From assembly GCA_003170475.1 (NCBI GenBank), contig PMZI01000032.1, positions 33,652 through 78,336 on the forward strand: a DNA stretch of 44,685 nt, written 5' to 3'. This stretch comes from Ignavibacteriota bacterium. GTDB lineage: Bacteria; Bacteroidota; Ignavibacteria; UBA10030. Positions 6,153 to 19,689 of the stretch are shown one piece after another (the stretch's first letter is position 1; the number at the start of each line of letters is the position of its first letter). The notes beneath the pieces were generated by a model. The model was not told the DNA's origin, did no database searches, and saw nothing but the letters and a program-made list of their open reading frames with translations. The translations under genes and the position numbers were made by a program.

Positions 6153-6282
6153 TATAGATGAATGGATAATTCACGAATTTCTAAAAATGCAAAAAAATGC
6201 GCGCAATTACCAGTGAAATTGGCACGAAACCTCGACTCGAAGGAGAGACTCGATCGAAAATGTTGATGTTGGAGAGCGGAAG

Positions 6283-8535
6283 TTACGACGAGGACTTGAA
6301 GCGGCGCAATCTCAATGAGTTTGAGACGACGCTGACGGAACTCATTGCCATCGCGCCAGCGGCAAACATCGGATTCAGAAGTCCGAACGCTGCCATCGGA
6401 ATGCCGATGATGTTGTAGACGAAAGCCCAAAAAAGATTCTGCTTGATAGTACGGATAGTTCGTTCGGAGAGTCTGATTGCCTCGACGACACCGGAGAGAT
6501 CGCTCTGCATCAGGGTGATATCTGCAGTTTCCATTGCAACATCCGTTCCGGAGGCCATGGCGATGCTGACGTCGGCTTGTGCGAGAGCCGGTGCGTCGTT
6601 GACACCATCACCAACCATGGCAACGCGTTCGCCTTTTGCCTGGAGATTTTTGATCTGTTGTGCCTTTTCCTGAGGCAGCACCTCAGATATGAACGAGTCA
6701 ACCCCCACTTGCGCAGCAATAGACTCCGCAGTCTGGGAATTGTCACCAGTGATCATGACAACGCGCAAACCCATCTTCTTGAGCCGACGAACCGCTTCCC
6801 GTGATCCCGGCTTCGTCGTGTCCGCAATTCCAAAGACGCCTGCGAGCGTGCGATTGACGGCCACAAAAACCGGGGTCTTTCCCTGTCTCGATAGATCCAG
6901 ACTGGTTTGTTCCAGGCTTGCGAGGTTCACTCCCAGGCGTTGCATCATCTTCAGATTGCCGATGCTCACCTCATCCCCTTGAACGGAGCCCTCCAATCCT
7001 ACGCCGGGAAATGAATCGAAGTGTGTGACGGATTCCGCTTCGACGCTCAGGCTTCTGGCGTATTCCACGATGGCGCGTCCCAACGGGTGTTCCGATTTGT
7101 TCTCCAAGGAACTTGCCCGCTGTAACAGAATCCGCCGGTCGATTCCGGCCAACGGGAAATAATCGGTGACCGAAGGTTTCCCCTCTGTGATCGTGCCGGT
7201 CTTGTCAAGAATGACGACTTGGATATGTTTTGCTCTCTCGAGACTCTCGGCGTTCTTAATAAGGATGCCCTTGGAAGCCCCCACTCCGGTGCCGACCATG
7301 ATCGCGGTAGGCGTTGCAAGTCCGAGGGCGCAGGGGCAGGCGATGATCAGGACGGCAATGAAATTGATCATCGACGCTGTGAAGGGAAGTTGGCCGATGG
7401 TGAACCAGGCCAGGAATGTCACCACAGCGATGCCTATGACAGTGGGCACGAAGACACTCGCGATCCTATCCGCCAGAGCCTGGATCGGCGCTTTCGATCC
7501 CTGTGCCTCTTCTACCATTCTTACAATGTTGGCGATGACGGTGTCTTTGCCGACGGCCGTCGCCTTGAACTCAATACTCCCATTCTTGTTTAGCGTTCCG
7601 CCGGTGACTTTCTCGCCTGCAGTCTTATCGACGGGCAGGGCTTCCCCCGTCACAAGCGATTCATCGATCGACGTGTCGCCGCTCGTGATGATTCCGTCGA
7701 CCGGTATCTTTTCTCCGGGCCGAACGATAATCGTGTCGTTGACAAGCAACTCGGAGACGGGGATATCAATTTCTCCTCCGTTTCTCCTGACCCTTGCGAT
7801 CTTAGGCTGCAGATCCAACAACTTCCTCATCGCATCGGTCGCTCGCTTCTTGGCTCCGGATTCCAGCACTCTACCCATGAGAATGAGAGTAGTAATAGTA
7901 GCTGCGGAGTCAAAATAGATGCCGTGCGCCGCCGCACTGGGCATCCAATGCGGAAACAAGACCACGATCGAACTGAAGCCGTACGCGGTTCCCGTTCCCA
8001 CGGCAACGAGCGTATTCATGTCGGCGGAGAAATGTCTCGCCAGCTTCCAGGCTGTTGAAAAGAATCGTCTTCCGGGAAGCACGATGACCGCGGTGGTTGC
8101 AAGGAACAGGAGCTTATTCAGATCCTCCATAGAGAGCGGAGACCAGCGCATGAACCAATCCGTCGTGCCGATCATGCTGACGATCATGATGGGGACGGTC
8201 AGGGTCGCACTGAGGAAGAAATCAGCCTTGAGTTTTCGGTAGGCGTTCTCCTGATGTGTGCCCTCGGAGAGAAGTGGATCCCCTCGTTCACGAGTCAGAA
8301 TCTTTGCAGGTTCTTCGGGAAGGAGAAGCCTGTAACCTGCGTTCTCGACGGAGAGGGCAAGCTGGTTAAGGTTCGTGACGTTCTGATCAAATGACATTGT
8401 CACGCGTTCTGAGGCGAGATTGACGATGGCTGAATCGACTCCGTCGACGCGTTGCAGGACTTTTTCAACGCGCGCAACGCAGCTAGCACATGTCATCCCT
8501 TCTACGGGAAGCGTCAATGTTTGAATTGATTTCAC
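6283..8535 (-). CDS. copA: Copper-translocating P1B-type ATPase
   Basis: 750 residues; exports Cu(I) across the inner membrane using ATP. One N-terminal HMA domain carries 'GMTCASC' (C16, C19). The transmembrane metal site is C400-P401-C402 ('IIACPCALG'). The phosphorylation site is D444 in 'DKTGT'; the actuator 'TGEA', the P1B 'SEHPLG' His-Pro, and the hinge '[10 protein letters not shown]' are all present. The last helix has the 'MAMSS' signature of the copper subclass. The start is GTG (8535-8533), placing the HMA domain at the very N-terminus; no better in-frame start exists. It lies 33 bases downstream of the CopZ-like gene, so the two are very probably co-transcribed, and the HMA-AraC gene upstream is the obvious candidate regulator. 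Confidence 0.95.
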
Positions 8536-10842: not shown

Positions 10843-11035
10843 AGGCTTTCAAGGGGATCGTTGAGACCGATCGCCGCAAAGTTCGGTTCGTGTGGAATGA
10901 AAAAAGTGTTCTTCTTAAACGACTGAGAAAAAGATCGTGTTCGAAGCTACAAGGAAATCGCGGGAAACTCAAGCCAGCCGATTTCACTTTTAGCTATTTT
11001 TGAGGTATCTTCTCAACATTGAGACTCGCCATCAA

Positions 11036-12025
11036 ATGAAAAAATTCACACTTAAGCAACTTCCTACCGATAATCTGCACCTCGTTCATCCGCAACGATT
11101 CAGAATCGATTATAAGAAAGAGCTGAATGCGGAGCAGTATGAAGCGGTCACCTCAGTCGATGGCCCTCATCTGATTATTGCCGGCGCGGGGACGGGAAAG
11201 ACGCGCACGGTGGTGTACCGCGTTGCGTACCTGGTTGAGCTGGGTGTCAAACCTGACAATATCTTGCTGCTCACGTTCACGCGCAAAGCTGCACAGGATA
11301 TGCTCAGGCGTGCGACAATCCTGCTGGATAGTCGATGCGAACACATCTCGGGCGGAACATTTCACTCCTTCGCCAACAACGTCTTGCGTCGCTATGCGGT
11401 AAAGCTAGGATATGAAACGAACTACTCCATCCTTGATCAGGGGGATGCCGAAGATGTGGTGAGTCTTGTTCGCACCCGCTTGAAATTTGACACCAAAGAG
11501 AAGAGATTTCCAAGAAAAGAAGCCCTCTACGATTTGTACAGCCGTTCCATCAATACCATGACGCCGGTCAAGGAGCTGCTTGCTCTGGATTATCCGCATT
11601 ACCTCGAGATCGAACCTGACATACAGATGGTACATAACGGCTACGTCCAGTACAAACATCAACACAACCTCATGGATTACGACGATCTTCTGGTGAACTT
11701 CGCACTCTTGCTGAACAAGGATGAAAGCATCAGGGCTGTTCTCTCTGATCGGTACAAGTACATTATGGTGGACGAGTATCAAGACACCAACCGCGTGCAG
11801 GCTGAGTTGGTCAAGCTTCTCGCGTTCAAGCATCGGAATATCATGGTCGTGGGAGATGATGCACAGTGTATCTACTCATTTCGCGGTTCTACCATCAAGA
11901 ATATCATGACCTTCCCGCAGGAATTCCCCGACTGTAAAGTCGTCAAGCTGGAGGAAAACTTCCGCAGCACGCAGCCAATTCTGAATCTTGCCAACGAGAT
12001 CTTGAAACGAGGGACTGTCTCCTGA
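11036..12025 (+). CDS. UvrD/PcrA-type superfamily 1 DNA helicase, N-terminal half (split gene)
   Basis: 330 residues from ATG 11036 (an upstream in-frame TTG at 11000 is less likely). Contains the Q motif region 'LNAEQYEAV', Walker A 'AGAGTGKTRT', motif Ia 'LLTFTRKAAQDML', motif II 'VDEYQDTN' and motif III 'VGDDAQCIYSFRGS', then 'EENFRSTQPIL' (motif IV). The frame ends at TGA 12023-12025, inside a 32-base insertion (12017-12048). Removing that insertion joins this frame exactly to the next one and restores the expected '..LKRGTP-MYYKELYT..' helicase sequence. The family role is ATP-driven 3'-5' unwinding in repair or replication restart. Alone, this half lacks motifs V and VI and should be inactive. 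The divergent upstream region has TATTTTTG at 10995, like the Bacteroidota -7 element, but no partner -33. Confidence 0.85.
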   Translation: MKKFTLKQLPTDNLHLVHPQRFRIDYKKELNAEQYEAVTSVDGPHLIIAGAGTGKTRTVVYRVAYLVELGVKPDNILLLTFTRKAAQDMLRRATILLDSRCEHISGGTFHSFANNVLRRYAVKLGYETNYSILDQGDAEDVVSLVRTRLKFDTKEKRFPRKEALYDLYSRSINTMTPVKELLALDYPHYLEIEPDIQMVHNGYVQYKHQHNLMDYDDLLVNFALLLNKDESIRAVLSDRYKYIMVDEYQDTNRVQAELVKLLAFKHRNIMVVGDDAQCIYSFRGSTIKNIMTFPQEFPDCKVVKLEENFRSTQPILNLANEILKRGTVS

Positions 12026-12048
12026 ATTCTGGTTTCTGAAGTCTGACT
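12017..12048 (+). repeat. 32-base insertion of short-period repeat sequence splitting the helicase gene
   Basis: The stretch iterates around TCTGAATTCTGG / TTCTGAAGTCTGACTCC, a low-complexity heptamer-like pattern of the kind found between genes, and nothing in it resembles helicase coding sequence. The codon ACT lies immediately before it (12014-12016) and ACT is also its last triplet (12046-12048), each in frame with its own half of the gene. Excising exactly 32 bases therefore restores one continuous frame. It introduces TGA at 12023 and a +2 shift. Confidence 0.75.
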
Positions 12049-12051
12049 CCT

Positions 12052-13074
12052 ATGTACTACAAAGAACTCTATACGCGTCGCTCCGGCGGAAGTCTCCCGC
12101 AGCTCATCTCCACGGAGAATGAGAACATGCAGTCGCGCTATGTCGTGCAGAAAATCCTGGAACTGCGCGAACAGGGAGTGCCGCTGGAAGAAATCGCCGT
12201 GCTGTTCCGGTCGTCGTTCCTCTCGTTCGATCTTGAAATCGAGTTGACGAAGGCGAACATCCCCTTTGTCAAATTCGGGGGCTACAAGTTTGTCGAAACG
12301 TCACACGTGAAAGATGTTGTGGCGTACCTGCGGGTTTTGGAGAACCCACGCGACGTTGTTTCATGGAACCGCATTCTTCTTTTGATCGACGGTGTCGGCC
12401 CGAGGACGGCGGAGAAAGTCGTCGACGACATCCTGAAGAGACGGGTGTCGCTGAGCTCTGATGGCCGGGAATCCTTGCCGACGACGAAGTTCTGGATGCA
12501 GTTCAATGACTACGCGGAAAACGTTCAGAAACTTTTTGATGTTTTGAAACAGGCTTCCCTGGCGAATCTGGGACCGGCCGAGAAGACGTTCCAGATACTT
12601 CAGTATTATGAGCCAATCCTTCGCGCCCGATACGATGATCATCAAAAAAGGAAGAAGGACCTTGAGATGTTCCAGAACATCACCGAGCGATACAAGGAGG
12701 TCGATGCGCTCCTGACTGACCTTGCCCTCGAGCCGCCGAATGAGAGCGTCGTCGATGTCGAGTCGCCGGGACCGGAGGAAGAATTTCTCACTCTTTCGAC
12801 CATCCACAGCGCGAAAGGGCTTGAGTGGAATTCCGTGTTCATTATCTATGCGCTGGAGGGACGATTTCCGACCATGCGATCGGTTGCCAGCGACGAAGAA
12901 GTCGAGGAGGAACGCCGCTTGATGTATGTTGCCTGTACGCGCGCCAAGGCAAACCTGTTCATTACGTATCCCATGAATGTGTATGATCGCGAGAGCGGAC
13001 TTATCCTCACAAAACCATCTCGTTTTATCCAGGGTCTCGGGGAACATCTGCTCGAGCCATGGGTTGTTGAATAA
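12052..13074 (+). CDS. UvrD/PcrA-type DNA helicase, C-terminal half (split gene)
   Basis: 340 residues from an ATG that is probably an internal Met of the original protein, since no Shine-Dalgarno precedes it. It carries the rest of the SF1 helicase: the 2B region, 'IAVLFRSSFLSFDLE', a helix-hairpin-helix-like 'LIDGVGPRTAEKVVDDIL', motif V 'LSTIHSAKGLEWNSVFI' and motif VI 'EERRLMYVACTRAKANLFI'. The sequence shows no further damage, so the split is recent or the two parts are still used. It ends 23 bases before the aminotransferase gene and may be co-transcribed with it. See the entry for the N-terminal half. Confidence 0.85.
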   Translation: MYYKELYTRRSGGSLPQLISTENENMQSRYVVQKILELREQGVPLEEIAVLFRSSFLSFDLEIELTKANIPFVKFGGYKFVETSHVKDVVAYLRVLENPRDVVSWNRILLLIDGVGPRTAEKVVDDILKRRVSLSSDGRESLPTTKFWMQFNDYAENVQKLFDVLKQASLANLGPAEKTFQILQYYEPILRARYDDHQKRKKDLEMFQNITERYKEVDALLTDLALEPPNESVVDVESPGPEEEFLTLSTIHSAKGLEWNSVFIIYALEGRFPTMRSVASDEEVEEERRLMYVACTRAKANLFITYPMNVYDRESGLILTKPSRFIQGLGEHLLEPWVVE

Positions 13075-13097: not shown

Positions 13098-14180
13098 ATG
13101 ACAAATTCCGGCACACTCAATCCTGACGCTGTTCTTCACCTTGACCGCAATGAAAACCTCTACGGTCCCGCGCCAAAGTGTTTCGAAGCCCTTCGCAGCA
13201 TCGGGCTGGAAGAATTGAGCGTTTACTCCCGTGACTTTACTCGTGGCGTGAAAAGCAGACTCTCAGAGCGTTTGGCGATGGAGCTTCAAATCCCGGAACC
13301 GCAGATTTTGCTGAGTGAGGGGAGTGAGGATATGCTCAAGCAGGCGGTGCATTGCTACCTCGGCCCCGGTGAGAAAATGCTCTGTCCGTCTCAATCATGG
13401 TGGTACTATCAAAAGGTGGCTGCCGAAGTCGCGGGCGAGACCGTCACCTACTCGCTCAAAGAAGGCCCCGATGCATTCTCCTACGATGTCGATGAGCTTA
13501 TCGAGCTCTACAAGAAGGAATCGCCGCGCGTTGTCCTGATCGCTTCCCCGAACAATCCGACCGGCAATTCATTTCCTGATGATGACCTGAACAAACTCAC
13601 CGAGGCCTTTCGGGAGAGCATCGTCGTCCTCGATGAAGCGTATTGGGGATTTGCCGATGTTTCGAATGAACATATCGCCAGTCTTGTCAGCCGCTATCGC
13701 AATCTCGTCGTTCTGAGGACTTTTTCCAAGTACTACGCTCTTGCGGGAGCCCGCATTGCGTTCGCTGCAGTTGGCACAAGCCTGAGTCGATTGACCAAAT
13801 TCTCTGCACGGTATCTGGGGTACAACCGCATTTCTGAAATCCTGGCGCTTGCCGCGCTGGATTCAGCGGAATACTATGAAACAATCAGCAGACAGATGCG
13901 CCAAGATCGTCAAGCCTACTACGAACTGTTTAGACGATACAAGGGATTCCGCTGCTTCACCTCGGACGCAAATTTCATTCTGGTAAAAGTCCCGCCGGAT
14001 GCACATGCACGATTGCAGGACTTTCTCCAAAGAAGACAGATCATGATCAAGTTCTTCTCGGAACCCGAGTTCGTCAACTGCGTGCGGATCACTCTCGGTA
14101 CACAGGAGCAGAACGCCCGGCTGTTGTCAGCACTTTCCGAATTTCTCGAAGCCCGTGAAGCAAGGGGAGGTTTGGCGTGA
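13098..14180 (+). CDS. HisC-like class I/II PLP-dependent aminotransferase
   Basis: 360 residues, fold-type I. 'SPNNPTG' (150-156), D179 and Y182 in 'VLDEAYWGF', the Schiff-base lysine K211 in 'RTFSKYYALAGARIAF' and R219 give a complete PLP site. The N-terminal 'LDRNENLYGPAP' is typical of the histidinol-phosphate aminotransferase / CobD-like branch, whose members act on phosphorylated amino compounds. No his gene is nearby. Instead its stop overlaps by four bases the start of a cytidylyltransferase/CDP-alcohol phosphotransferase fusion, so it probably makes or consumes an amino-alcohol phosphate (or related compound) for that enzyme. The exact substrate cannot be read from sequence; true HisC activity or threonine-phosphate decarboxylase (CobD-like) activity are alternatives. 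Confidence 0.88.
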   Translation: MTNSGTLNPDAVLHLDRNENLYGPAPKCFEALRSIGLEELSVYSRDFTRGVKSRLSERLAMELQIPEPQILLSEGSEDMLKQAVHCYLGPGEKMLCPSQSWWYYQKVAAEVAGETVTYSLKEGPDAFSYDVDELIELYKKESPRVVLIASPNNPTGNSFPDDDLNKLTEAFRESIVVLDEAYWGFADVSNEHIASLVSRYRNLVVLRTFSKYYALAGARIAFAAVGTSLSRLTKFSARYLGYNRISEILALAALDSAEYYETISRQMRQDRQAYYELFRRYKGFRCFTSDANFILVKVPPDAHARLQDFLQRRQIMIKFFSEPEFVNCVRITLGTQEQNARLLSALSEFLEAREARGGLA

Positions 14181-15835
14181 AGTGTATCATTCTTGCCGCG
14201 GGCACCTCAACCCGTCTGCGACCTCTGACGAACAATCTCCCGAAATGTCTCTTGCCGGTAGGGGAAAAGCCCATCCTGCAGCGAGCCATCGAACACGTCA
14301 CGGCAGCGGGCATTGAACAGATTGGGTTGGTGATCGGCTTTCATGCCGAGATGATTCGCGATTTCGTGAAGAAGCAGTTTCCATCTCTCCGTATTCGTTT
14401 CATGGTCAATCCAAAATTTGAATCGACGAACAACGCCTTCTCACTTCTGATGGCCCGTGAGTTCTTCAACGCAGAATCCAAGAAGAACAAACCCCTCCAC
14501 GATCTTTTGCTGATGGATGCGGATATTGTTTTTTCGCCGCACTTGCTTCCATTCTTGCTCAACGAGGGTTCGCCAAATCGCATCGCGATGAGAGTGGCGG
14601 GACATCATGACGAAGAAGAAGTGAGGGTGCAGGTCGACGCTTTAGGGAACGTTCTCGTCATCGGAAAAACCACACCGTTGGCGGACGCGTTCGGGGAATC
14701 CCTCGGCATCGAGTTCTTCTCTTCTCTTGCCGCACAGAGACTTTTCGAGATCCTCGAGCAGCGTGTGAGGGCTGGTGAAGGGCGACACGAATTCTATGAA
14801 GCAACATTTCAGGCGATGATCGATCAGGGAATTCGCTTCAAAGCTGTGGACGTGAGTTCTTTTCCCGCAATCGAGATTGATACTCCGGAAGACCTCTTCG
14901 CGGCCGAAGCTCTCGTTCTGCGCAGCACGGCAATTCGAAATAATCTTGACGAAGATCCGGGACCCCCACTCTTGACGTACGATTACAAGAAATCAGTGAA
15001 GTCGAGTCTTTCGGATGAACTGATCAATACATACCTGCTGAGGCCATTGGCTGGGCTTGTCGTCCGGGTCTTTTACCGCACGCCGATCACGCCGAATCAC
15101 GTCACATTTGCTTCGACCATCGCTGGGCTCGTTGCGGCAAGCCTTTACCTGAAGGGTGATGCTTTCCTCACTGCGATTGCCGGTTTGTGTGTGACGCTCA
15201 AAGACATCCTTGACTCGGCCGATGGTCAGCTCGCACGTGCAAAGCAACAGTATTCGCGGAGAGGCAGGTTTCTCGATTCGCTCGGGGACTTCGTTGTCGA
15301 TGTGGCTGTGTTTGGAGCTCTTGGGTGGGTACTGTATGCTTCCTCAGGGGATTGGAGGATGATCGTTCTCAGTATCCTCGGACTTTTTGGTATCACGTTA
15401 CGCGTATCGTACCACGTCTTCTATCAGACCTCGTTTCTCCACCTCGAGCAAAAATATGAAGTCAATCGGATCACAGAAAACATCACGACCAACGATTTGA
15501 CCGGTGACCTCGTAGCCTTGCGGCTGCAGAAGGCTTTTCAGCTCATCTACGGATGGCAGGATCGTTTGATGCTCCGGGTCGATACATGGTGCAGACACGG
15601 GCGGGCTGACCGGGAATTTTTGATCCACTGGTATTCCCATCCAATGGGTCTCAGGCTCTCGGGCCTTGTGGGATTCGGAACAGAATTGTTTCTGCTCATG
15701 GTTTGTTCGTTGTTCAATGCGCTTGCACTCTATCTGGTTCTTAATGTATTCTTCATGAGCGGAATAGTTTTGGTTTCCGTACTTTATCGTCGTTGGTACC
15801 TCAGCGCAACACTTCCCTTGAAAGGTCAGTCATGA
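14177..15835 (+). CDS. Fusion: LicC/IPCT-like cytidylyltransferase + CDP-alcohol phosphotransferase
   Basis: 552 residues, start GTG overlapping the previous stop (GTGA), with AGGGGAGG at 14163-14170 as ribosome site. Residues 1-250 are a nucleotidyltransferase: 'LAAGTSTRLRPLT', 'PKCLLPVGEKPIL', the 'STNNAFSL' motif (83-90) shared by choline-P, aminoethylphosphonate and inositol-P cytidylyltransferases, D114/D116 'LMDADIVFS' for metal, and 'EIDTPEDL'. Residues about 275-540 are a membrane CDP-alcohol phosphotransferase with a perfect signature D346-x2-DG-x2-AR-x8-G-x3-D-x3-D371 and several membrane helices. One protein can therefore make a CDP-alcohol and transfer its phospho-alcohol to a second alcohol. 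The known analogue is the IPCT/DIPPS enzyme of di-myo-inositol phosphate synthesis. The substrate here is unknown; the adjoining aminotransferase points to an amino alcohol. Confidence 0.88.
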   Translation: MKCIILAAGTSTRLRPLTNNLPKCLLPVGEKPILQRAIEHVTAAGIEQIGLVIGFHAEMIRDFVKKQFPSLRIRFMVNPKFESTNNAFSLLMAREFFNAESKKNKPLHDLLLMDADIVFSPHLLPFLLNEGSPNRIAMRVAGHHDEEEVRVQVDALGNVLVIGKTTPLADAFGESLGIEFFSSLAAQRLFEILEQRVRAGEGRHEFYEATFQAMIDQGIRFKAVDVSSFPAIEIDTPEDLFAAEALVLRSTAIRNNLDEDPGPPLLTYDYKKSVKSSLSDELINTYLLRPLAGLVVRVFYRTPITPNHVTFASTIAGLVAASLYLKGDAFLTAIAGLCVTLKDILDSADGQLARAKQQYSRRGRFLDSLGDFVVDVAVFGALGWVLYASSGDWRMIVLSILGLFGITLRVSYHVFYQTSFLHLEQKYEVNRITENITTNDLTGDLVALRLQKAFQLIYGWQDRLMLRVDTWCRHGRADREFLIHWYSHPMGLRLSGLVGFGTELFLLMVCSLFNALALYLVLNVFFMSGIVLVSVLYRRWYLSATLPLKGQS

Positions 15836-18186
15836 GAAAACTTTTCCTCTTTGTTCTGCAGCTCATCTTCGTGCTGTCTCTGAACGCCCAGATCCCCGGT
15901 GACTCCGGTAACCGGGTTCTTCTCCCGAATGGTTGGTGGCTCTCCCCGGCCGGAGAGCAGATTCCCTTGGGTGATTTTCCCATGAACGCAGCAATGACTG
16001 AGGACGAAGCATACCTTGCCATACTGCATGGTGGCCAATCGAAGGCTCAGGTCATGCTCTTCGATGTGAAAGAAAAAAAAATCACACAGATAATTCAGCT
16101 GAAAGATGCATGGCAGGGAATCGTGTTTCAGGGAAGGAGCCTGTATGTATCCGGTGGGTTCCAGAACTGTGTTTACACCTTCCGCCTCGAACAGGGAACT
16201 TTGGTGGCGGGAGATACTCTCAAGCTTGTGGCTGGCAAACCGGACTATGACGGCGCAGCGGCCGGATTGGATGTGAGACAGAATACACTCGCCATCGTAT
16301 TCCGAAGAGACAGTACGTTGCGGTACTACGACCTGCGAACAAAACTGCAGAGTGTCGTGAAGTTGACCGGCATGCCGTATTCCTGCAAGTTCGATGCGAA
16401 AGGGCTGCTCGTTGTATCCCTCTGGGGCTCGAAAAAGATTCAAGTGTTTGAGAAGACCAGGCTTCTCTATGACTGTCCGACCGGCGATCATCCAAACGAA
16501 ATCATCCTCTCGAACGACAATCGATATGCCTATGTTGCGTGTGCCAACGACAACACCGTCTCTGTGATTGATCTTCAAAAGAAAAAGGCTGTGGCGTCGG
16601 TCTCCACTGCTATCCATCCCGATGCACCGGAGGGATCGACAACAAACTCTGTCTGTCTGACCCCTGATCAGAAAACTGTTCTCGCGGCAAACGCCGACAA
16701 CAATTCTCTCACCGTGGTCGATGTCAGGGATCCCGTTCATCCGCGGCCTGTTGGGTTCATTCCTGTCGGTTGGTATCCAACGAAAGTCATGATGCTCAAG
16801 GATAAGACCGTACTCGTTTTGAACGGGAAAGGGGCGCGCTCGCTGGCGAATCCACTGAAGCAATACATCGGCAGCCTGCTTGATGGCATGCTTTCCATCT
16901 TCACGCTTCCGACAGAGAAGGAGTTACTTGAGTACTCTCAGCAGGTATTCAAGAACACACCGTACAAGCAAGCATCGCTCCTGAAAGCGGAGTACAACGG
17001 CGAAAGCTCGGTTCCAAAGAAAGTGGGTCAGTCATCACCCATAAAGCATGTCCTCTATATTATCAAAGAGAACCGCACGTACGACCAGGTGTTCGGTGAC
17101 ATGCCCGAGGGAAACGGGGATACATCACTCTGCCTCTTCGGCGAAGTGGTGTCGCCGAATCACCATAAGCTCACGCGGGAGTTCACATTGTTCGACAATT
17201 TCTATGTGAATGCCGAGGTCAGCGCCGACGGCCACAACTGGTCGATGGCTGCGTACGCGACAGACTACATCGAAAAAACATGGCCTACTCAATATGGCGG
17301 ACGGGGTGGCCCGTACGATTTCGAAGGATCAGAGCCGACGGGCAGGCCAAAGGCGGGATACCTGTGGACCACCTGTGCCAAAAAGGGGGTGAGCTTCAGG
17401 ATGTACGGCGAGTTCATCGATGCCGCGACTCCGGAAGGCCAGCCCGCGAAGCCGCGCGATCCCGGCATTGGCAAGAACTTTTCCTCGACGTACCGCGGTT
17501 GGGACCTCGACTATTCTGATGTCGATCGATTCAAAGCGTGGGAAAAAGAGTTCTCTGAATATGAGAAGAATGGAAAGCTTCCGAGTCTCTGCATTATGCA
17601 TCTCCCGAACGACCACACGGCGGGCACGCATAAAGGAACTCTGACACCGAAGGCTTATGTCGCGCAAAACGACTACGCTCTTGGATTGATTATTGAGCGA
17701 TACTCAAAAAGTCCGTACTGGAAGGAATCAGCGATCTTCGTCGTCGAAGACGATGCCCAAAATGGACCCGATCACGTCGACGCCCATCGCTCTGTCGGCA
17801 TGGTTATCAGTCCGTTTATCAAGAAGCACACGGTCAATCATACTCTCTATACTACCGCTTCCATGCTCAGGACGATCGAGTTGTTCCTCGGTTTGCCTCC
17901 GATGAGTCAGTACGATGCCGGAGCGACACCGATGTTCGACGCCTTCGCGCCAAAACCTGACCTAGCGTCCTATCTCGCCGAAAAGCCGCGAATAGATCTG
18001 GGTGAGAAGAACAAGGCGGGAAGTGTCGGCCAAAATATGATGGAGAAGTACAATCTGAAGAGGGAGGACGCGATTCCCGACCGCGCGTTCAACGAGATTA
18101 TCTGGCAAGCGGTGAAAGGGACGCCGATGCCGGCACCGCGGTATTCTATCTTTTCGCGTGCGGCAGGAGCAGAGGGTGACGACTAA
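15832..18186 (+). CDS. Exported YncE-like beta-propeller / phosphoesterase (PF04185) protein
   Basis: 784 residues from ATG 15832, which overlaps the previous stop (ATGA) and begins a clear signal peptide 'MRKLFLFVLQLIFVLSLNAQ'; a longer frame from 15793 would bury it. Residues about 30-370 are YncE/NHL-type propeller repeats ('YAYVACANDNTVSVIDL', 'TVLAANADNNSLTVVDV'). Residues about 400-780 are a phosphoesterase/phospholipase C-like domain with 'ENRTYDQVFGD' (E413, N414, T416), 'HLPNDHTAGTH', and metal ligands in 'EDDAQNGPDHVDAHR' (D640, D641, H648, D650, H652). It acts in the periplasm or at the surface, probably on a phosphodiester or phosphomonoester. Tight coupling to the CDP-alcohol phosphotransferase suggests its substrate is that product or a related lipid, but this is inference. 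A terminator follows. Confidence 0.9.
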   Translation: MRKLFLFVLQLIFVLSLNAQIPGDSGNRVLLPNGWWLSPAGEQIPLGDFPMNAAMTEDEAYLAILHGGQSKAQVMLFDVKEKKITQIIQLKDAWQGIVFQGRSLYVSGGFQNCVYTFRLEQGTLVAGDTLKLVAGKPDYDGAAAGLDVRQNTLAIVFRRDSTLRYYDLRTKLQSVVKLTGMPYSCKFDAKGLLVVSLWGSKKIQVFEKTRLLYDCPTGDHPNEIILSNDNRYAYVACANDNTVSVIDLQKKKAVASVSTAIHPDAPEGSTTNSVCLTPDQKTVLAANADNNSLTVVDVRDPVHPRPVGFIPVGWYPTKVMMLKDKTVLVLNGKGARSLANPLKQYIGSLLDGMLSIFTLPTEKELLEYSQQVFKNTPYKQASLLKAEYNGESSVPKKVGQSSPIKHVLYIIKENRTYDQVFGDMPEGNGDTSLCLFGEVVSPNHHKLTREFTLFDNFYVNAEVSADGHNWSMAAYATDYIEKTWPTQYGGRGGPYDFEGSEPTGRPKAGYLWTTCAKKGVSFRMYGEFIDAATPEGQPAKPRDPGIGKNFSSTYRGWDLDYSDVDRFKAWEKEFSEYEKNGKLPSLCIMHLPNDHTAGTHKGTLTPKAYVAQNDYALGLIIERYSKSPYWKESAIFVVEDDAQNGPDHVDAHRSVGMVISPFIKKHTVNHTLYTTASMLRTIELFLGLPPMSQYDAGATPMFDAFAPKPDLASYLAEKPRIDLGEKNKAGSVGQNMMEKYNLKREDAIPDRAFNEIIWQAVKGTPMPAPRYSIFSRAAGAEGDD

Positions 18187-18222: not shown

Positions 18223-18255
18223 AAGGCCAACCGTGAAAGGTTGGCCTTATTTTTT
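18223..18255 (+). terminator. Strong (bidirectional-type) terminator
   Basis: Perfect 10-bp stem AAGGCCAACC / GGTTGGCCTT (18223-18232 with 18239-18248), 6-base loop, then ATTTTTTC on the plus strand. It ends the helicase/aminotransferase/phosphoesterase transcription unit. The 3' end of the convergent response-regulator gene overlaps the right stem, so the same hairpin probably stops that transcript too, although the T-run on the minus side is weaker. Confidence 0.92.
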
Positions 18256-19527
18256 CTTGTTCGCCATTTCCGAGAGTTTCCTGAATCGCTTCAGCTTTCC
18301 CCTGATGGTGGCGAGGAGGGTTTCATCTGAAAAAGGCTTGGTGACGTAGTCGTCCACGCCCAACTCTTTGCCGGTACGGATTAAGACCTCATCGGTAAGG
18401 CCGCTGAGGAAAATGAAGGGGATGTTGTGCAGGTGATCCAGCTCCCGGACTTTCTCATAAAATGAAAACCCGCCCATCGTTGACGTTTCGAGGTTGATAT
18501 CAGAGATGATAAGATCCGGCTTATTCTCCTTGAGGTACTTGAACGCGTCGTCGGACGTTGAGAACGATCGAACGTTGTACTTTGATTCCCGCAGGGTTTC
18601 GCTCACCACCTTCAGAAATTTGATATCGTCATCGACAATCGCCAGTGTCGTTGGATGTGCCTCGGACCTGACTTCCCAAAGGATCTCCGCCTCGAGCCGG
18701 TCGGATTCCTCAGGTGTAATCTGAAAGCGCGTTCGCAAATCGGAGAGCTCTGAGGCGCGATCGGGCGTAATGGATCCACTCGACCATGATTGCCGAAACG
18801 CTTGAAGGTAGGATTCCAGCTGTGCTTCTTTCGTCAGCCGGGCATGTTCTTCTGCTGTGATGCCGTATTTTGCTTTGAGTTCCACAAGCTGCATTTCTTC
18901 GAACGGCGTAAGCGTTCCGTCCTCCCAGGCTTTCAGAAGCTCATTCTTGTATTTTACCAGCCTGTCAGACTGAATGGTCTTCGTGGCGGCCTGTCTCTTG
19001 GTCTCCTCTTCCTTCCGACGCAACTCGGCTTCTGCTTCGCGGAGCTCACGCTCGAGCTCTTCGAGAGAAAGTGCGCTCTCTCCGGTCCGACCTTCCTTTG
19101 GTTCTACTGGTGGTTTAATGATCTCAGGTGGCCTTGTTTCCGGACGATGTACCTCAGCTTGCTTCGCCTCCTGCTTCCGTGCCTCCTGTTGCTTTCGCAC
19201 TGTCTCCTGCCTGCGTACCTCCTCCTGCTTGAGGCGCTCGAGCTCCACATCCGCTAGTCGCCGGGCCTCTTCGTCCCGAACTCGAGCTGCTTCCTCGGCC
19301 TCTTTGCGTGTTTGTTCATCCTTGATATGTTTTTCGTGCTCATTCCTGAGGTAGGTCAACCGTTCTTCATACGCGAAGATGTAGACATTCTTTGGGTCGA
19401 CTTCCTTCGCCTGGATGATCTCACGGATAGCCTGGTCGAGCTCTCCCGCGCGAATGAGACGGTCCACCCGTTTCAGGATCTCGCTGACCTTCTTCTTAAT
19501 ATCATCTCGGGGAGTGAGTTCTGTCAT
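18247..19527 (-). CDS. Coiled-coil protein with duplicated helical module and C-terminal response-regulator receiver domain
   Basis: 426 residues from ATG 19527 (GGAG just upstream; ATG 19536 is an equal alternative, and the longer frame to 19650 would run through the promoter). Residues 10-60 form a TPR-like helix pair ('AGELDQAIREI..DPKN'), then a charged coiled coil (about 60-180). Two copies of a 44-residue module follow (about 193-236 and 240-283) sharing W..G.(L/I)TP....L..L+..(Y/F).IT.EE. The C-terminus (about 293-426) is a receiver domain with acidic pocket D299-D301, phosphoacceptor D343 ('ISDINLE'), S375 and K397 ('VTKPF'). There is no DNA-binding or enzymatic output domain, so the phospho-signal probably alters protein contacts. 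No histidine kinase is adjacent. A consensus sigma-54 promoter lies about 55 bases upstream. Confidence 0.88.
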   Translation of the reverse strand: MTELTPRDDIKKKVSEILKRVDRLIRAGELDQAIREIIQAKEVDPKNVYIFAYEERLTYLRNEHEKHIKDEQTRKEAEEAARVRDEEARRLADVELERLKQEEVRRQETVRKQQEARKQEAKQAEVHRPETRPPEIIKPPVEPKEGRTGESALSLEELERELREAEAELRRKEEETKRQAATKTIQSDRLVKYKNELLKAWEDGTLTPFEEMQLVELKAKYGITAEEHARLTKEAQLESYLQAFRQSWSSGSITPDRASELSDLRTRFQITPEESDRLEAEILWEVRSEAHPTTLAIVDDDIKFLKVVSETLRESKYNVRSFSTSDDAFKYLKENKPDLIISDINLETSTMGGFSFYEKVRELDHLHNIPFIFLSGLTDEVLIRTGKELGVDDYVTKPFSDETLLATIRGKLKRFRKLSEMANKKK

Positions 19528-19582
19528 GATCTCCATCGTACCTGAAAAATCAGGGGAAAAGTAACCAACTGTTGAGGCAAAT

Positions 19583-19597
19583 GCAAGAAAGGTGCCC
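19583..19597 (-). promoter_or_regulatory. Sigma-54 (-24/-12) promoter of the response-regulator gene
   Basis: The minus strand reads GGGCACCTTTCTTGC followed by A. Against the consensus TGGCACG-N4-TTGCW it matches GGCAC at -24 and TTGC(A) at -12 with exact spacing; only the first T and the G at the end of the -24 block differ. Transcription would start near 19571, giving a leader of about 45 bases before ATG 19527. A dyad lies about 95-115 bases further upstream, where an enhancer site would be expected. Confidence 0.6.
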
Positions 19598-19689
19598 GGC
19601 GACCTTGTTATCGTGTGCCGGACGAAATCAGAAAGGTCGCAATCGATCACCGAACTGGGTCAGCGACAAGAGAAGATTGAAATGGTGTC

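What the first reader, a model, noticed from the sequence alone, without database searches (positions are those of the whole stretch)
13098..18186. Candidate undescribed phosphodiester or head-group pathway: aminotransferase + CDP-alcohol synthase/transferase fusion + exported phosphoesterase
Seen: three genes overlapping by 4 bases at each junction (GTGA, ATGA) and ending in one terminator. The middle protein joins a LicC/IPCT-like cytidylyltransferase to a CDP-alcohol phosphotransferase with a perfect catalytic signature; the third is an exported propeller-phosphoesterase. Known: the fusion architecture occurs in di-myo-inositol-phosphate synthesis, and related cytidylyltransferases fuse to transaminases in aminoethylphosphonate pathways. 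Here a separate HisC/CobD-like aminotransferase takes that place, and no PEP mutase or inositol-phosphate synthase is present. Inference: an amino-alcohol phosphate is activated with CTP and joined to a second alcohol or lipid, with the phosphoesterase trimming or recycling the product outside.
Basis: partly seen in the sequence, partly recalled or inferred. Interest (0 to 1): 0.62.

Follow-up and report, generated by a model that had tools for sequence, protein, structure and literature searches.

The report
Amino-alcohol activation operon in Ignavibacteria
A conserved but apparently uncharacterised three-enzyme pathway in Ignavibacteria probably makes a small amino-alcohol phosphate, activates it with CTP and attaches it to a membrane molecule, much as animals make phosphatidylethanolamine.

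Summary
In detail: aminotransferase (AT), cytidylyltransferase-CDP-alcohol phosphotransferase fusion (NTP-CAP) and exported phosphoesterase, four-base overlaps, one strong terminator. AT, NTP and CAP form a conserved module. In 98 genomes of the order (this one included) all 45 AT carriers carry the NTP, adjacent in 43, and all 50 NTP carriers have a CAP. Of eight AT carriers elsewhere in the class, five have AT-CAP-NTP. A Prevotella has AT-NTP-LicD. The fusion was seen only here; the phosphoesterase is loosely linked (beside CAP in 9 of 46 carriers). The genome shows no inositol-phosphate synthase or PEP mutase, but has a separate HisC and a PS decarboxylase, so inositol, phosphonate, histidine and sole-PE readings are disfavoured. 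Best reading: AT makes an amino-alcohol phosphate (ethanolamine or serinol favoured), NTP makes its CDP ester, CAP transfers it to a membrane acceptor. Substrate and acceptor are inferred. Against it: nine genomes keep CAP without AT or NTP, five keep NTP without AT, and CAP scores best with AF2299 and inositol-type enzymes. A new variant of CDP-choline/Lic/Pnt logic; no report of it was found in the open papers searched.

The parts
13098..14180 (+). HisC-like fold-type I PLP enzyme (AT): proposed maker of an amino-alcohol phosphate, as transaminase or decarboxylase. PLP residues N153, D179, Y182, K211, R219 conserved; family marks W101-W102-Y103-Y104 and K318
14177..14926 (+). LicC/PntC-like cytidylyltransferase domain (residues 1-250): proposed CTP + X-phosphate -> CDP-X + PPi. 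D114, D116, E208, E233, D235 invariant in 28 of 28
14963..15835 (+). CDP-alcohol phosphotransferase domain CAP1 (residues 263-552), membrane protein; catalytic signature at residues 346-371 (15212-15289). Seen fused to the NTP only in this genome
15832..18186 (+). Exported beta-propeller + PF04185 phosphoesterase (784 aa from ATG): overlaps gene 2 here, loosely associated elsewhere
18223..18248 (+). Intrinsic terminator, 10-bp stem, T-rich tail
11000..13074 (+). Upstream neighbour, not part of the module: UvrD-type helicase encoded as two ORFs (11000-12025, 12052-13074); marks the genomic place of the module in many family relatives

Best explanation
A bacterial Kennedy/Lic-type head-group pathway with its own supply step. 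Step 1 (inferred from family and context): a HisC-related PLP enzyme makes a small amino-alcohol phosphate from a C3 phosphate, most likely ethanolamine phosphate by decarboxylation of phosphoserine or serinol phosphate by transamination of dihydroxyacetone phosphate. Step 2 (inferred from the fold family and invariant active-site residues): the LicC/PntC-like domain couples it to CTP, giving CDP-X. Step 3 (inferred): the membrane CDP-alcohol phosphotransferase moves phospho-X from CDP-X to a hydroxyl acceptor in the membrane (a lipid is most likely) and releases CMP. The exported phosphoesterase may cleave such phosphodiesters outside, but is an optional neighbour. What is shown here is the genetic module and the family of each enzyme, not the chemistry.
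For: AT, NTP and CAP travel together: 45 of 45 AT genomes have the NTP (5 more have NTP only, 48 neither), adjacent in 43; 46 of 50 NTP genomes have CAP1 and the other 4 have the paralog CAP2; NTP lies beside a CAP in 49 of 50 by coordinates (in the 50th, G060, a short ORF of the same family lies between AT and NTP). Of 8 further genomes of the class with the AT, 5 have AT-CAP2-NTP, 2 AT-CAP2 with no NTP nearby, 1 the AT alone. Terminal transferase swap: Prevotella oral taxon 299 has AT(41%)-NTP(37%)-LicD, LicD confirmed by Pfam. Domain fusion elsewhere: an NTP fused to a class I/II aminotransferase next to a CAP on Erwinia and Rahnella plasmids. NTP profile: best solved relatives are PntC (97.7 bits) and LicC (96.7), IPCT 51.0. 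The residue aligned with PntC Glu196, which with Glu104 is positioned to hydrogen-bond the primary amine of its substrate (PMC6697681, passages), is invariant Glu208 in 28 of 28. AT is not the histidine enzyme: a separate HisC scores 378 bits, the AT 232 against a cut-off of 276.55; it lacks the N-terminal stretch of the genome's own HisC and has Lys where that HisC has Arg. HisC-like PLP enzymes making such phosphates exist: Cj1436 (ethanolamine phosphate) and Cj1437 (serinol phosphate) (PMC12409886, passages; that they are HisC-like is recalled). No PEP mutase and no inositol-phosphate synthase match in the genome.
Against: No experiment and no usable structure model (mean pLDDT 40.7 and 47.6). 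Nine genomes of family f4 keep CAP1 and CAP2 with no AT and no NTP ortholog; a profile search found only distant NTP relatives there, at the level of two module-free control genomes, and a CTP_transf_like search showed no more enzymes of that fold than in module carriers, so CAP1 may use some other CDP-alcohol there. Five genomes have NTP-CAP1 but no AT ortholog. The CAP resembles AF2299 and inositol-type enzymes most: 29 of 29 relatives hit the NCBIfam models for PIP synthase, archaetidylinositol-phosphate synthase and IPCT/DIPPS, and CEPT1 comes only at 19.2 bits for CAP1 and 25.8 for CAP2, so a lipid acceptor is not shown. 28 of 28 NTPs also hit the IPCT/DIPPS model, though the window NTP does so at 50.0 bits against 580. 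PS decarboxylase is present in the genome and in 95 of 98, so ordinary PE has another route. Fisher p 1e-22 for AT/NTP co-occurrence ignores shared ancestry.
Confidence: 0.6

Rival explanations
1. Specific version A: X is ethanolamine. The AT is a phosphoserine decarboxylase, the NTP an ethanolamine-phosphate cytidylyltransferase, and the CAP puts phosphoethanolamine on a lipid other than diacylglycerol, or on diacylglycerol as a second PE route.
For: Cj1436 precedent; invariant Glu208 as in PntC, whose substrate carries a primary aminoethyl group. Loss of AT in 5 genomes that keep NTP-CAP1 is easiest if X-phosphate can be obtained elsewhere, as ethanolamine phosphate can (inference).
Against: PE has the usual route. 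The AT is nearer HisC than CobD (232 against 137.7 bits; solved relatives 189 against 86.7 bits). I know of no ethanolamine-specific residue for the AT.
Confidence: 0.33
2. Specific version B: X is serinol (2-amino-1,3-propanediol) or another chiral amino-alcohol. The AT is a transaminase acting on DHAP; the product would be a serinol-headed lipid.
For: Closer to HisC (a transaminase) than to CobD; Cj1437 precedent; in two class members the AT-CAP2 pair follows genes that read as GAPDH and PGK, i.e. triose-phosphate metabolism (read by eye).
Against: No serinol lipid is known to me; the gene neighbours are weak evidence.
Confidence: 0.2
3. CAP1/CAP2 work with CDP-diacylglycerol or another common CDP-alcohol, and AT-NTP serve a separate pathway that happens to be co-located.
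For: Nine f4 genomes keep CAP1 and CAP2 without AT/NTP; CAP scores best with AF2299 and CDP-diacylglycerol-using inositol enzymes.
Against: NTP-CAP adjacency in 49 of 50 genomes, in several gene orders and with two CAP paralogs, plus a fusion; AT-CAP-NTP also outside the order.
Confidence: 0.15
4. Di-myo-inositol-phosphate or inositol-lipid synthesis, as the fusion architecture suggests.
For: NCBIfam best hit of the fusion is the Thermococcales IPCT/DIPPS model (97.6 bits, cut-off 580); 28 of 28 NTPs and 29 of 29 CAP1s hit it; 4mnd is the second-best solved relative of CAP1.
Against: Far below cut-off; NTP profile closer to PntC/LicC; no inositol-phosphate synthase match in the genome, 10 of 98 in the order, of which only G048 and G072 are among the 50 NTP carriers.
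Confidence: 0.03
5. Aminoethylphosphonate (Pnt) pathway.
For: NTP is as close to PntC as to LicC; a Sinorhizobium plasmid has PEP mutase-AT-NTP-CAP.
Against: No PEP mutase match in this genome; 2 of 98 genomes over the cut-off, one of them (G036) a module carrier.
Confidence: 0.03

Closest known systems
Lic pathway (LicC cytidylyltransferase, LicD transferase; choline phosphate on glycans)
   Same: LicC-like activation of a nitrogenous alcohol phosphate with CTP; a Prevotella relative of the module ends in LicD
   Different: X-phosphate is proposed to be made de novo by a PLP enzyme, not by a choline kinase; the transferase is a membrane CDP-alcohol phosphotransferase
Pnt pathway (PntC and PntC-AEPT fusion, aminoethylphosphonate)
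   Same: Cytidylyltransferase paired with an aminotransferase; Glu196 equivalent conserved
   Different: No PEP mutase match; aminotransferase is class I/II HisC-like, not the class V AEP transaminase
Eukaryotic Kennedy pathway (PCYT2 / CEPT1)
   Same: CDP-amino-alcohol plus CDP-alcohol phosphotransferase logic
   Different: NTP of the LicC superfamily and not of the CTP_transf_like fold; CAP1 only weakly similar to CEPT1 (19.2 bits); acceptor unknown
Archaeal IPCT/DIPPS fusion
   Same: Domain order NTP-CAP in one chain; weak model hits by both domains
   Different: Fusion seen only in this genome among relatives read, NTP closer to PntC/LicC, no inositol-phosphate synthase match
Campylobacter Cj1436/Cj1437
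   Same: PLP enzymes that make ethanolamine phosphate or serinol phosphate for a surface polymer
   Different: There the phosphate is used for amide formation on a sugar and then removed; no CTP activation is described in the passages seen

Membership tests
Histidinol-phosphate transaminase (HisC) | Score over the NCBIfam TIGR01141 cut-off; role in histidine synthesis | tested here: not met
   232 bits against 276.55; another gene in the genome scores 378; N-terminal segment of the own HisC missing in the six family members aligned with it. Role itself not tested
CobD threonine-phosphate decarboxylase | Score over TIGR01140 cut-off | tested here: not met
   137.7 bits against 290.55
Fold-type I PLP enzyme, class I/II | PLP lysine and Asn/Asp/Tyr/Arg ligands | tested here: met
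   N153, D179, Y182, K211 and R219 invariant in 29 of 29; roles of these positions recalled
LicC/PntC cytidylyltransferase group | Closest solved relatives LicC and PntC; metal Asp and amine-contacting acid conserved | tested here: met
   97.7 and 96.7 bits; D114, D116, E208 invariant in 28 of 28
LicC/PntC cytidylyltransferase group | CTP and amino-alcohol phosphate as substrates | not testable with these tools
   needs an enzyme assay
IPCT/DIPPS (di-myo-inositol phosphate) | NCBIfam NF041135 cut-off | tested here: not met
   97.6 bits against 580
IPCT/DIPPS (di-myo-inositol phosphate) | Inositol-phosphate synthase in the genome | tested here: not met
   no PF01658 match in G000, genome 96.3% complete
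Pnt phosphonate tailoring | PEP mutase | tested here: not met
   no TIGR02320 match in G000; 2 of 98 genomes over the cut-off
CDP-alcohol phosphotransferases (PF01066) | D-x2-D-G-x2-A-R-x8-G-x3-D-x3-D signature and membrane helices | tested here: met
   Pfam 40.8 bits over cut-off 22; signature invariant in 29 of 29; hydrophobic segments
Kennedy-type choline/ethanolamine phosphotransferase | CDP-amino-alcohol donor, diacylglycerol acceptor | not testable with these tools
   only weak profile similarity to CEPT1
PF04185 phosphoesterase | Pfam gathering score | tested here: met
   72.7 bits against 23

The most novel reading that the evidence does not exclude
Ignavibacteria run a complete bacterial counterpart of the CDP-ethanolamine branch of the Kennedy pathway, fed de novo by a dedicated HisC-derived PLP enzyme, and use it, beside ordinary PS-decarboxylase PE synthesis, to build a second and so far unrecognised amino-phospholipid (for example a serinol- or ethanolamine-headed lipid on an unusual acceptor); in other bacteria the same AT-NTP pair is plugged into LicD to decorate glycans.
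Probability: 0.3. Interest if true: 0.68.

Novelty: new variant of a known kind. Interest (0 to 1): 0.47.

Why it matters
If right, it gives bacteria a way to make CDP-amino-alcohols de novo, without choline or ethanolamine uptake and kinase, and predicts a lipid class in a poorly studied group. It would also give a usable marker (this HisC-like enzyme next to a LicC-like gene) for amino-alcohol decoration of glycans through LicD elsewhere.

Tried and rejected
Inositol reading: tested by profile scores and by search for inositol-phosphate synthase; disfavoured, though both domains hit the IPCT/DIPPS model below cut-off. Phosphonate reading: tested by PEP mutase search; disfavoured. Sole route to PE: rejected because PS decarboxylase is in 95 of 98 genomes including this one, where a PF01066 gene lies beside it. 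Fusion as defining feature: rejected; G035 looked fused from the open-frame figure, but reading the DNA shows stop codons between the two parts. An extra CTP_transf_like enzyme as donor source in the f4 genomes: not seen. Structure prediction of the fusion and of the AT failed for lack of alignment depth; no fold search was run. The AT tree is of no use: the row meant as own HisC was the wrong ORF, other outgroup rows were picked the same way, and all sat on very long branches. One search used the right HisC ORF. No tree of the NTP or CAP was built.

How the counts were made: rows were copied by hand into the script. Weaker rows (further nucleotidyltransferases, a third CAP type near inositol-phosphate synthase in f4) were not counted. 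One search lists matches only down to about 2e-12, and CAP2 of G060 is missed, so CAP2 is undercounted. For genomes whose NTP and CAP matched as one row, approximate starts were entered.

Rows left out of alignments: A1 used 22 of the 26 NTP ORFs plus 6 others (L054, L068, L076, L083 left out); A2 used 21 of 24 AT ORFs plus 8 others (L055, L077, L080 left out; L123 not added); A3 used 29 of 32 CAP1 ORFs (L054, L074, L081 left out); A4 used 10 of 16 CAP2 ORFs plus 7 others (L054, L056, L058, L059, L068, L076 left out). Weak NTP matches L003 and L004 were not followed; L002 served only in a fold alignment.

Papers: PMC6697681, PMC12409886 and PMC13276843 seen as passages; the primary Cj1436/Cj1437 paper (PMC8524856) is not held and was not read; all others seen only in search listings.
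Full report
What is there. Three genes on the + strand, 13098-14180, 14177-15835 and 15832-18186, overlap by four bases at each junction and are followed by a strong intrinsic terminator at 18223-18248. The products are a class I/II PLP enzyme, a nucleotidyltransferase fused to a CDP-alcohol phosphotransferase, and a propeller-phosphoesterase with a signal-peptide-like start. The window is C2:33652-78336 of an 85-contig, 4.08-Mb genome that is 96.3% complete. A contig matching the fusion at 81% (best segment) is titled Ignavibacteriales (L001) and has the same length, 8204 bases, as contig C90 of same-genus genome G051, so the organism is of that group (inference).

Conservation. I searched the 98 held genomes of the order, this one included, with the fusion and the AT and tallied rows by the criteria given under Tried and rejected: NTP ortholog in 50, AT ortholog in 45, CAP1 in 55, a paralog CAP2 in at least 27. 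All 45 AT genomes have the NTP; 5 have NTP without AT (G026, G027, G028, G030, G032); 48 have neither. AT and NTP are adjacent in 43 of 45; in the other two (G037, G077) the AT sits beside CAP2. NTP lies beside CAP1 in 37 and beside CAP2 in 16, beside at least one in 49 of 50. Recurring gene orders are AT-NTP-CAP1 (as here), AT-CAP2-NTP, and CAP2-AT-NTP-CAP1. The Fisher p of 1e-22 ignores shared ancestry.

Outside the order. Of 395 genomes sampled from the phylum, 17 have the AT at E 1e-50 or better: 9 in the order and 8 in other orders of the same class. Of these eight, five have AT-CAP2-NTP preceded by a gene of one family, which Pfam calls LysE-type in the two tested; two have AT-CAP2 with no NTP nearby; one has the AT alone in the 12 kb read. 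Prevotella oral taxon 299 carries AT (41%), NTP (37%) and LicD in a row, the AT-NTP pair with the same four-base overlap. Among 72 plasmid records with AT-like matches the Prevotella one is first at 41%; of the other 14 listed, all at 29-31%, twelve are annotated histidinol-phosphate transaminase and two carry no annotation (57 records not listed).

The fusion. In the sister genome L001 NTP and CAP1 are separate ORFs, 6262-7035 and 7058-7921, and no other fused ORF turned up in the relatives read. The fusion is therefore likely a recent join, and its likeness to the archaeal inositol enzyme coincidental (inference). It still suggests that the two activities work in one pathway.

Cytidylyltransferase. 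A profile of 28 relatives matches PntC (6pd1, 97.7 bits) and LicC (1jyk, 96.7) best, then sugar nucleotidyltransferases (up to 59.6), IPCT at 51.0. NCBIfam has no closer model: the window NTP scores 80.4 bits with an archaeal GlmU-like model and 50.0 with IPCT/DIPPS, both far below cut-off. [quoted passage not shown] By the printed alignment these are Glu208 (as in PntC) and Asp114 (as in LicC) of the window protein, both invariant in 28 of 28. That favours a small primary amine over choline, but it is an argument from two positions only.

Aminotransferase. It scores 232 bits with the HisC model, below the cut-off of 276.55, while another gene of the same genome scores 378. None of the 25 best NCBIfam models shown reached its cut-off. 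The PLP ligands are invariant in 29 of 29. Against the genome's own HisC, the family members aligned lack the N-terminal segment, have SWWYY(K/Q) where that HisC has PTYGMYR, and Lys318 where it has Arg (that these places touch the substrate in HisC is recalled). PLP enzymes that make ethanolamine phosphate from phosphoserine (Cj1436) or serinol phosphate (Cj1437) are known from Campylobacter (PMC12409886, passages; that they are HisC-like is recalled).

Phosphotransferase. CAP1 has the full catalytic signature, invariant in 29 of 29, CAP2 likewise in 17 of 17; the second half of CAP1, conserved in the family, is not covered by the Pfam match. Best solved relatives of CAP1 are AF2299 (67.8 bits), the archaeal DIPP synthase (53.0) and PIP synthases (37); CEPT1 comes at 19.2 bits, 25.8 for CAP2. 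All 29 CAP1s hit inositol-type NCBIfam models; the window one is far below their cut-offs. Donor and acceptor cannot be read from this.

Exclusions. PEP mutase: no match in this genome; 2 of 98 over the cut-off, one of them the module carrier G036. Inositol-phosphate synthase: no match here, 10 of 98 in the order, of which G048 and G072 carry the NTP. PS decarboxylase: present here and in 95 of 98, so ordinary PE does not need this operon.

The phosphoesterase. A relative at E 1e-50 or better occurs in 46 of 98 genomes but beside CAP1 in only 9 by coordinates, all of family f1 (a lower bound, since contig ends cut some); 12 carriers have no NTP and 16 NTP genomes lack it. Genome-level association exists (p 2e-5, ancestry ignored), but it is a neighbour, not a core part. 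A role in cleaving or recycling the product remains possible.

Results against the reading. Nine f4 genomes keep CAP1 and CAP2 (side by side in eight) without AT or NTP. A profile search found only distant nucleotidyltransferases there, at the level of two module-free controls, and the CTP_transf_like count (1-4 a genome) does not exceed that of module carriers (3-5). Five of the nine have inositol-phosphate synthase. Either CAP1 accepts another CDP-alcohol or these genomes have an unrecognised supply. Five genomes lack the AT but keep NTP-CAP1, so X-phosphate must come from elsewhere there, which fits ethanolamine phosphate better than a rare amino-alcohol.

Conclusion. The module is real, conserved and, as far as the open-licence papers searched show, undescribed as such. 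Its logic is the CDP-choline/Lic/Pnt logic with a dedicated PLP supply step and a membrane phosphotransferase: a new variant of a known kind. The identity of X (ethanolamine 0.33, serinol 0.2) and of the acceptor are open and directly testable.

Noticed in passing
window 11000-12025 and 12052-13074: A UvrD/PcrA-type helicase is encoded as two ORFs (N-terminal and C-terminal halves). The same split is seen in 12 of 42 neighbourhood loci, this window included: gaps from a 41-base overlap to 267 bases in ten, about 0.8 and 1.2 kb in two (L058, L056). It looks like a genuinely split helicase rather than a sequencing frameshift (inference).
   Followed up: partly
L121 7119-7922, L122 8661-9461, L124 5685-6479, L125 7085-7885, L126 7315-8133: A LysE-type exporter gene (Pfam in L121 and L122; the others by blastp) lies directly upstream of AT-CAP2-NTP in five class members outside the order; no match among ORFs of the 42 loci. 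A possible exporter of a pathway compound.
   Followed up: partly
L127 5325-8859, L128 8186-11715: AT-CAP2 follows two genes that read as GAPDH and phosphoglycerate kinase (by eye), which may hint at a triose-phosphate-derived substrate.
   Followed up: no
G012:C64, G013:C4, G014:C73, G017:C39, G021:C82, G023:C56: In these f4 genomes an inositol-phosphate synthase lies within about 15 kb of a CDP-alcohol phosphotransferase-like or nucleotidyltransferase match, pointing to separate inositol clusters.
   Followed up: no
L099 5920-8458, L217 7980-10458: Plasmids of Erwinia rhapontici and Rahnella sikkimica carry a natural-product-like cluster with a cytidylyltransferase-aminotransferase fusion, a CDP-alcohol phosphotransferase, HAD proteins and an SDR gene.
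   Followed up: no
L219 2385-8050: A Vibrio alfacsensis plasmid has a LicC-like cytidylyltransferase after a PEP-utilizing enzyme and a glutamine-hydrolase-like gene, a set that recalls the Campylobacter phosphoramidate pathway (recalled, not tested).
   Followed up: no
window 18247-19650 (-): A response-regulator gene with a long charged N-terminal part faces the operon; its single-linkage family has members in 23 of 42 neighbourhood loci.
   Followed up: no
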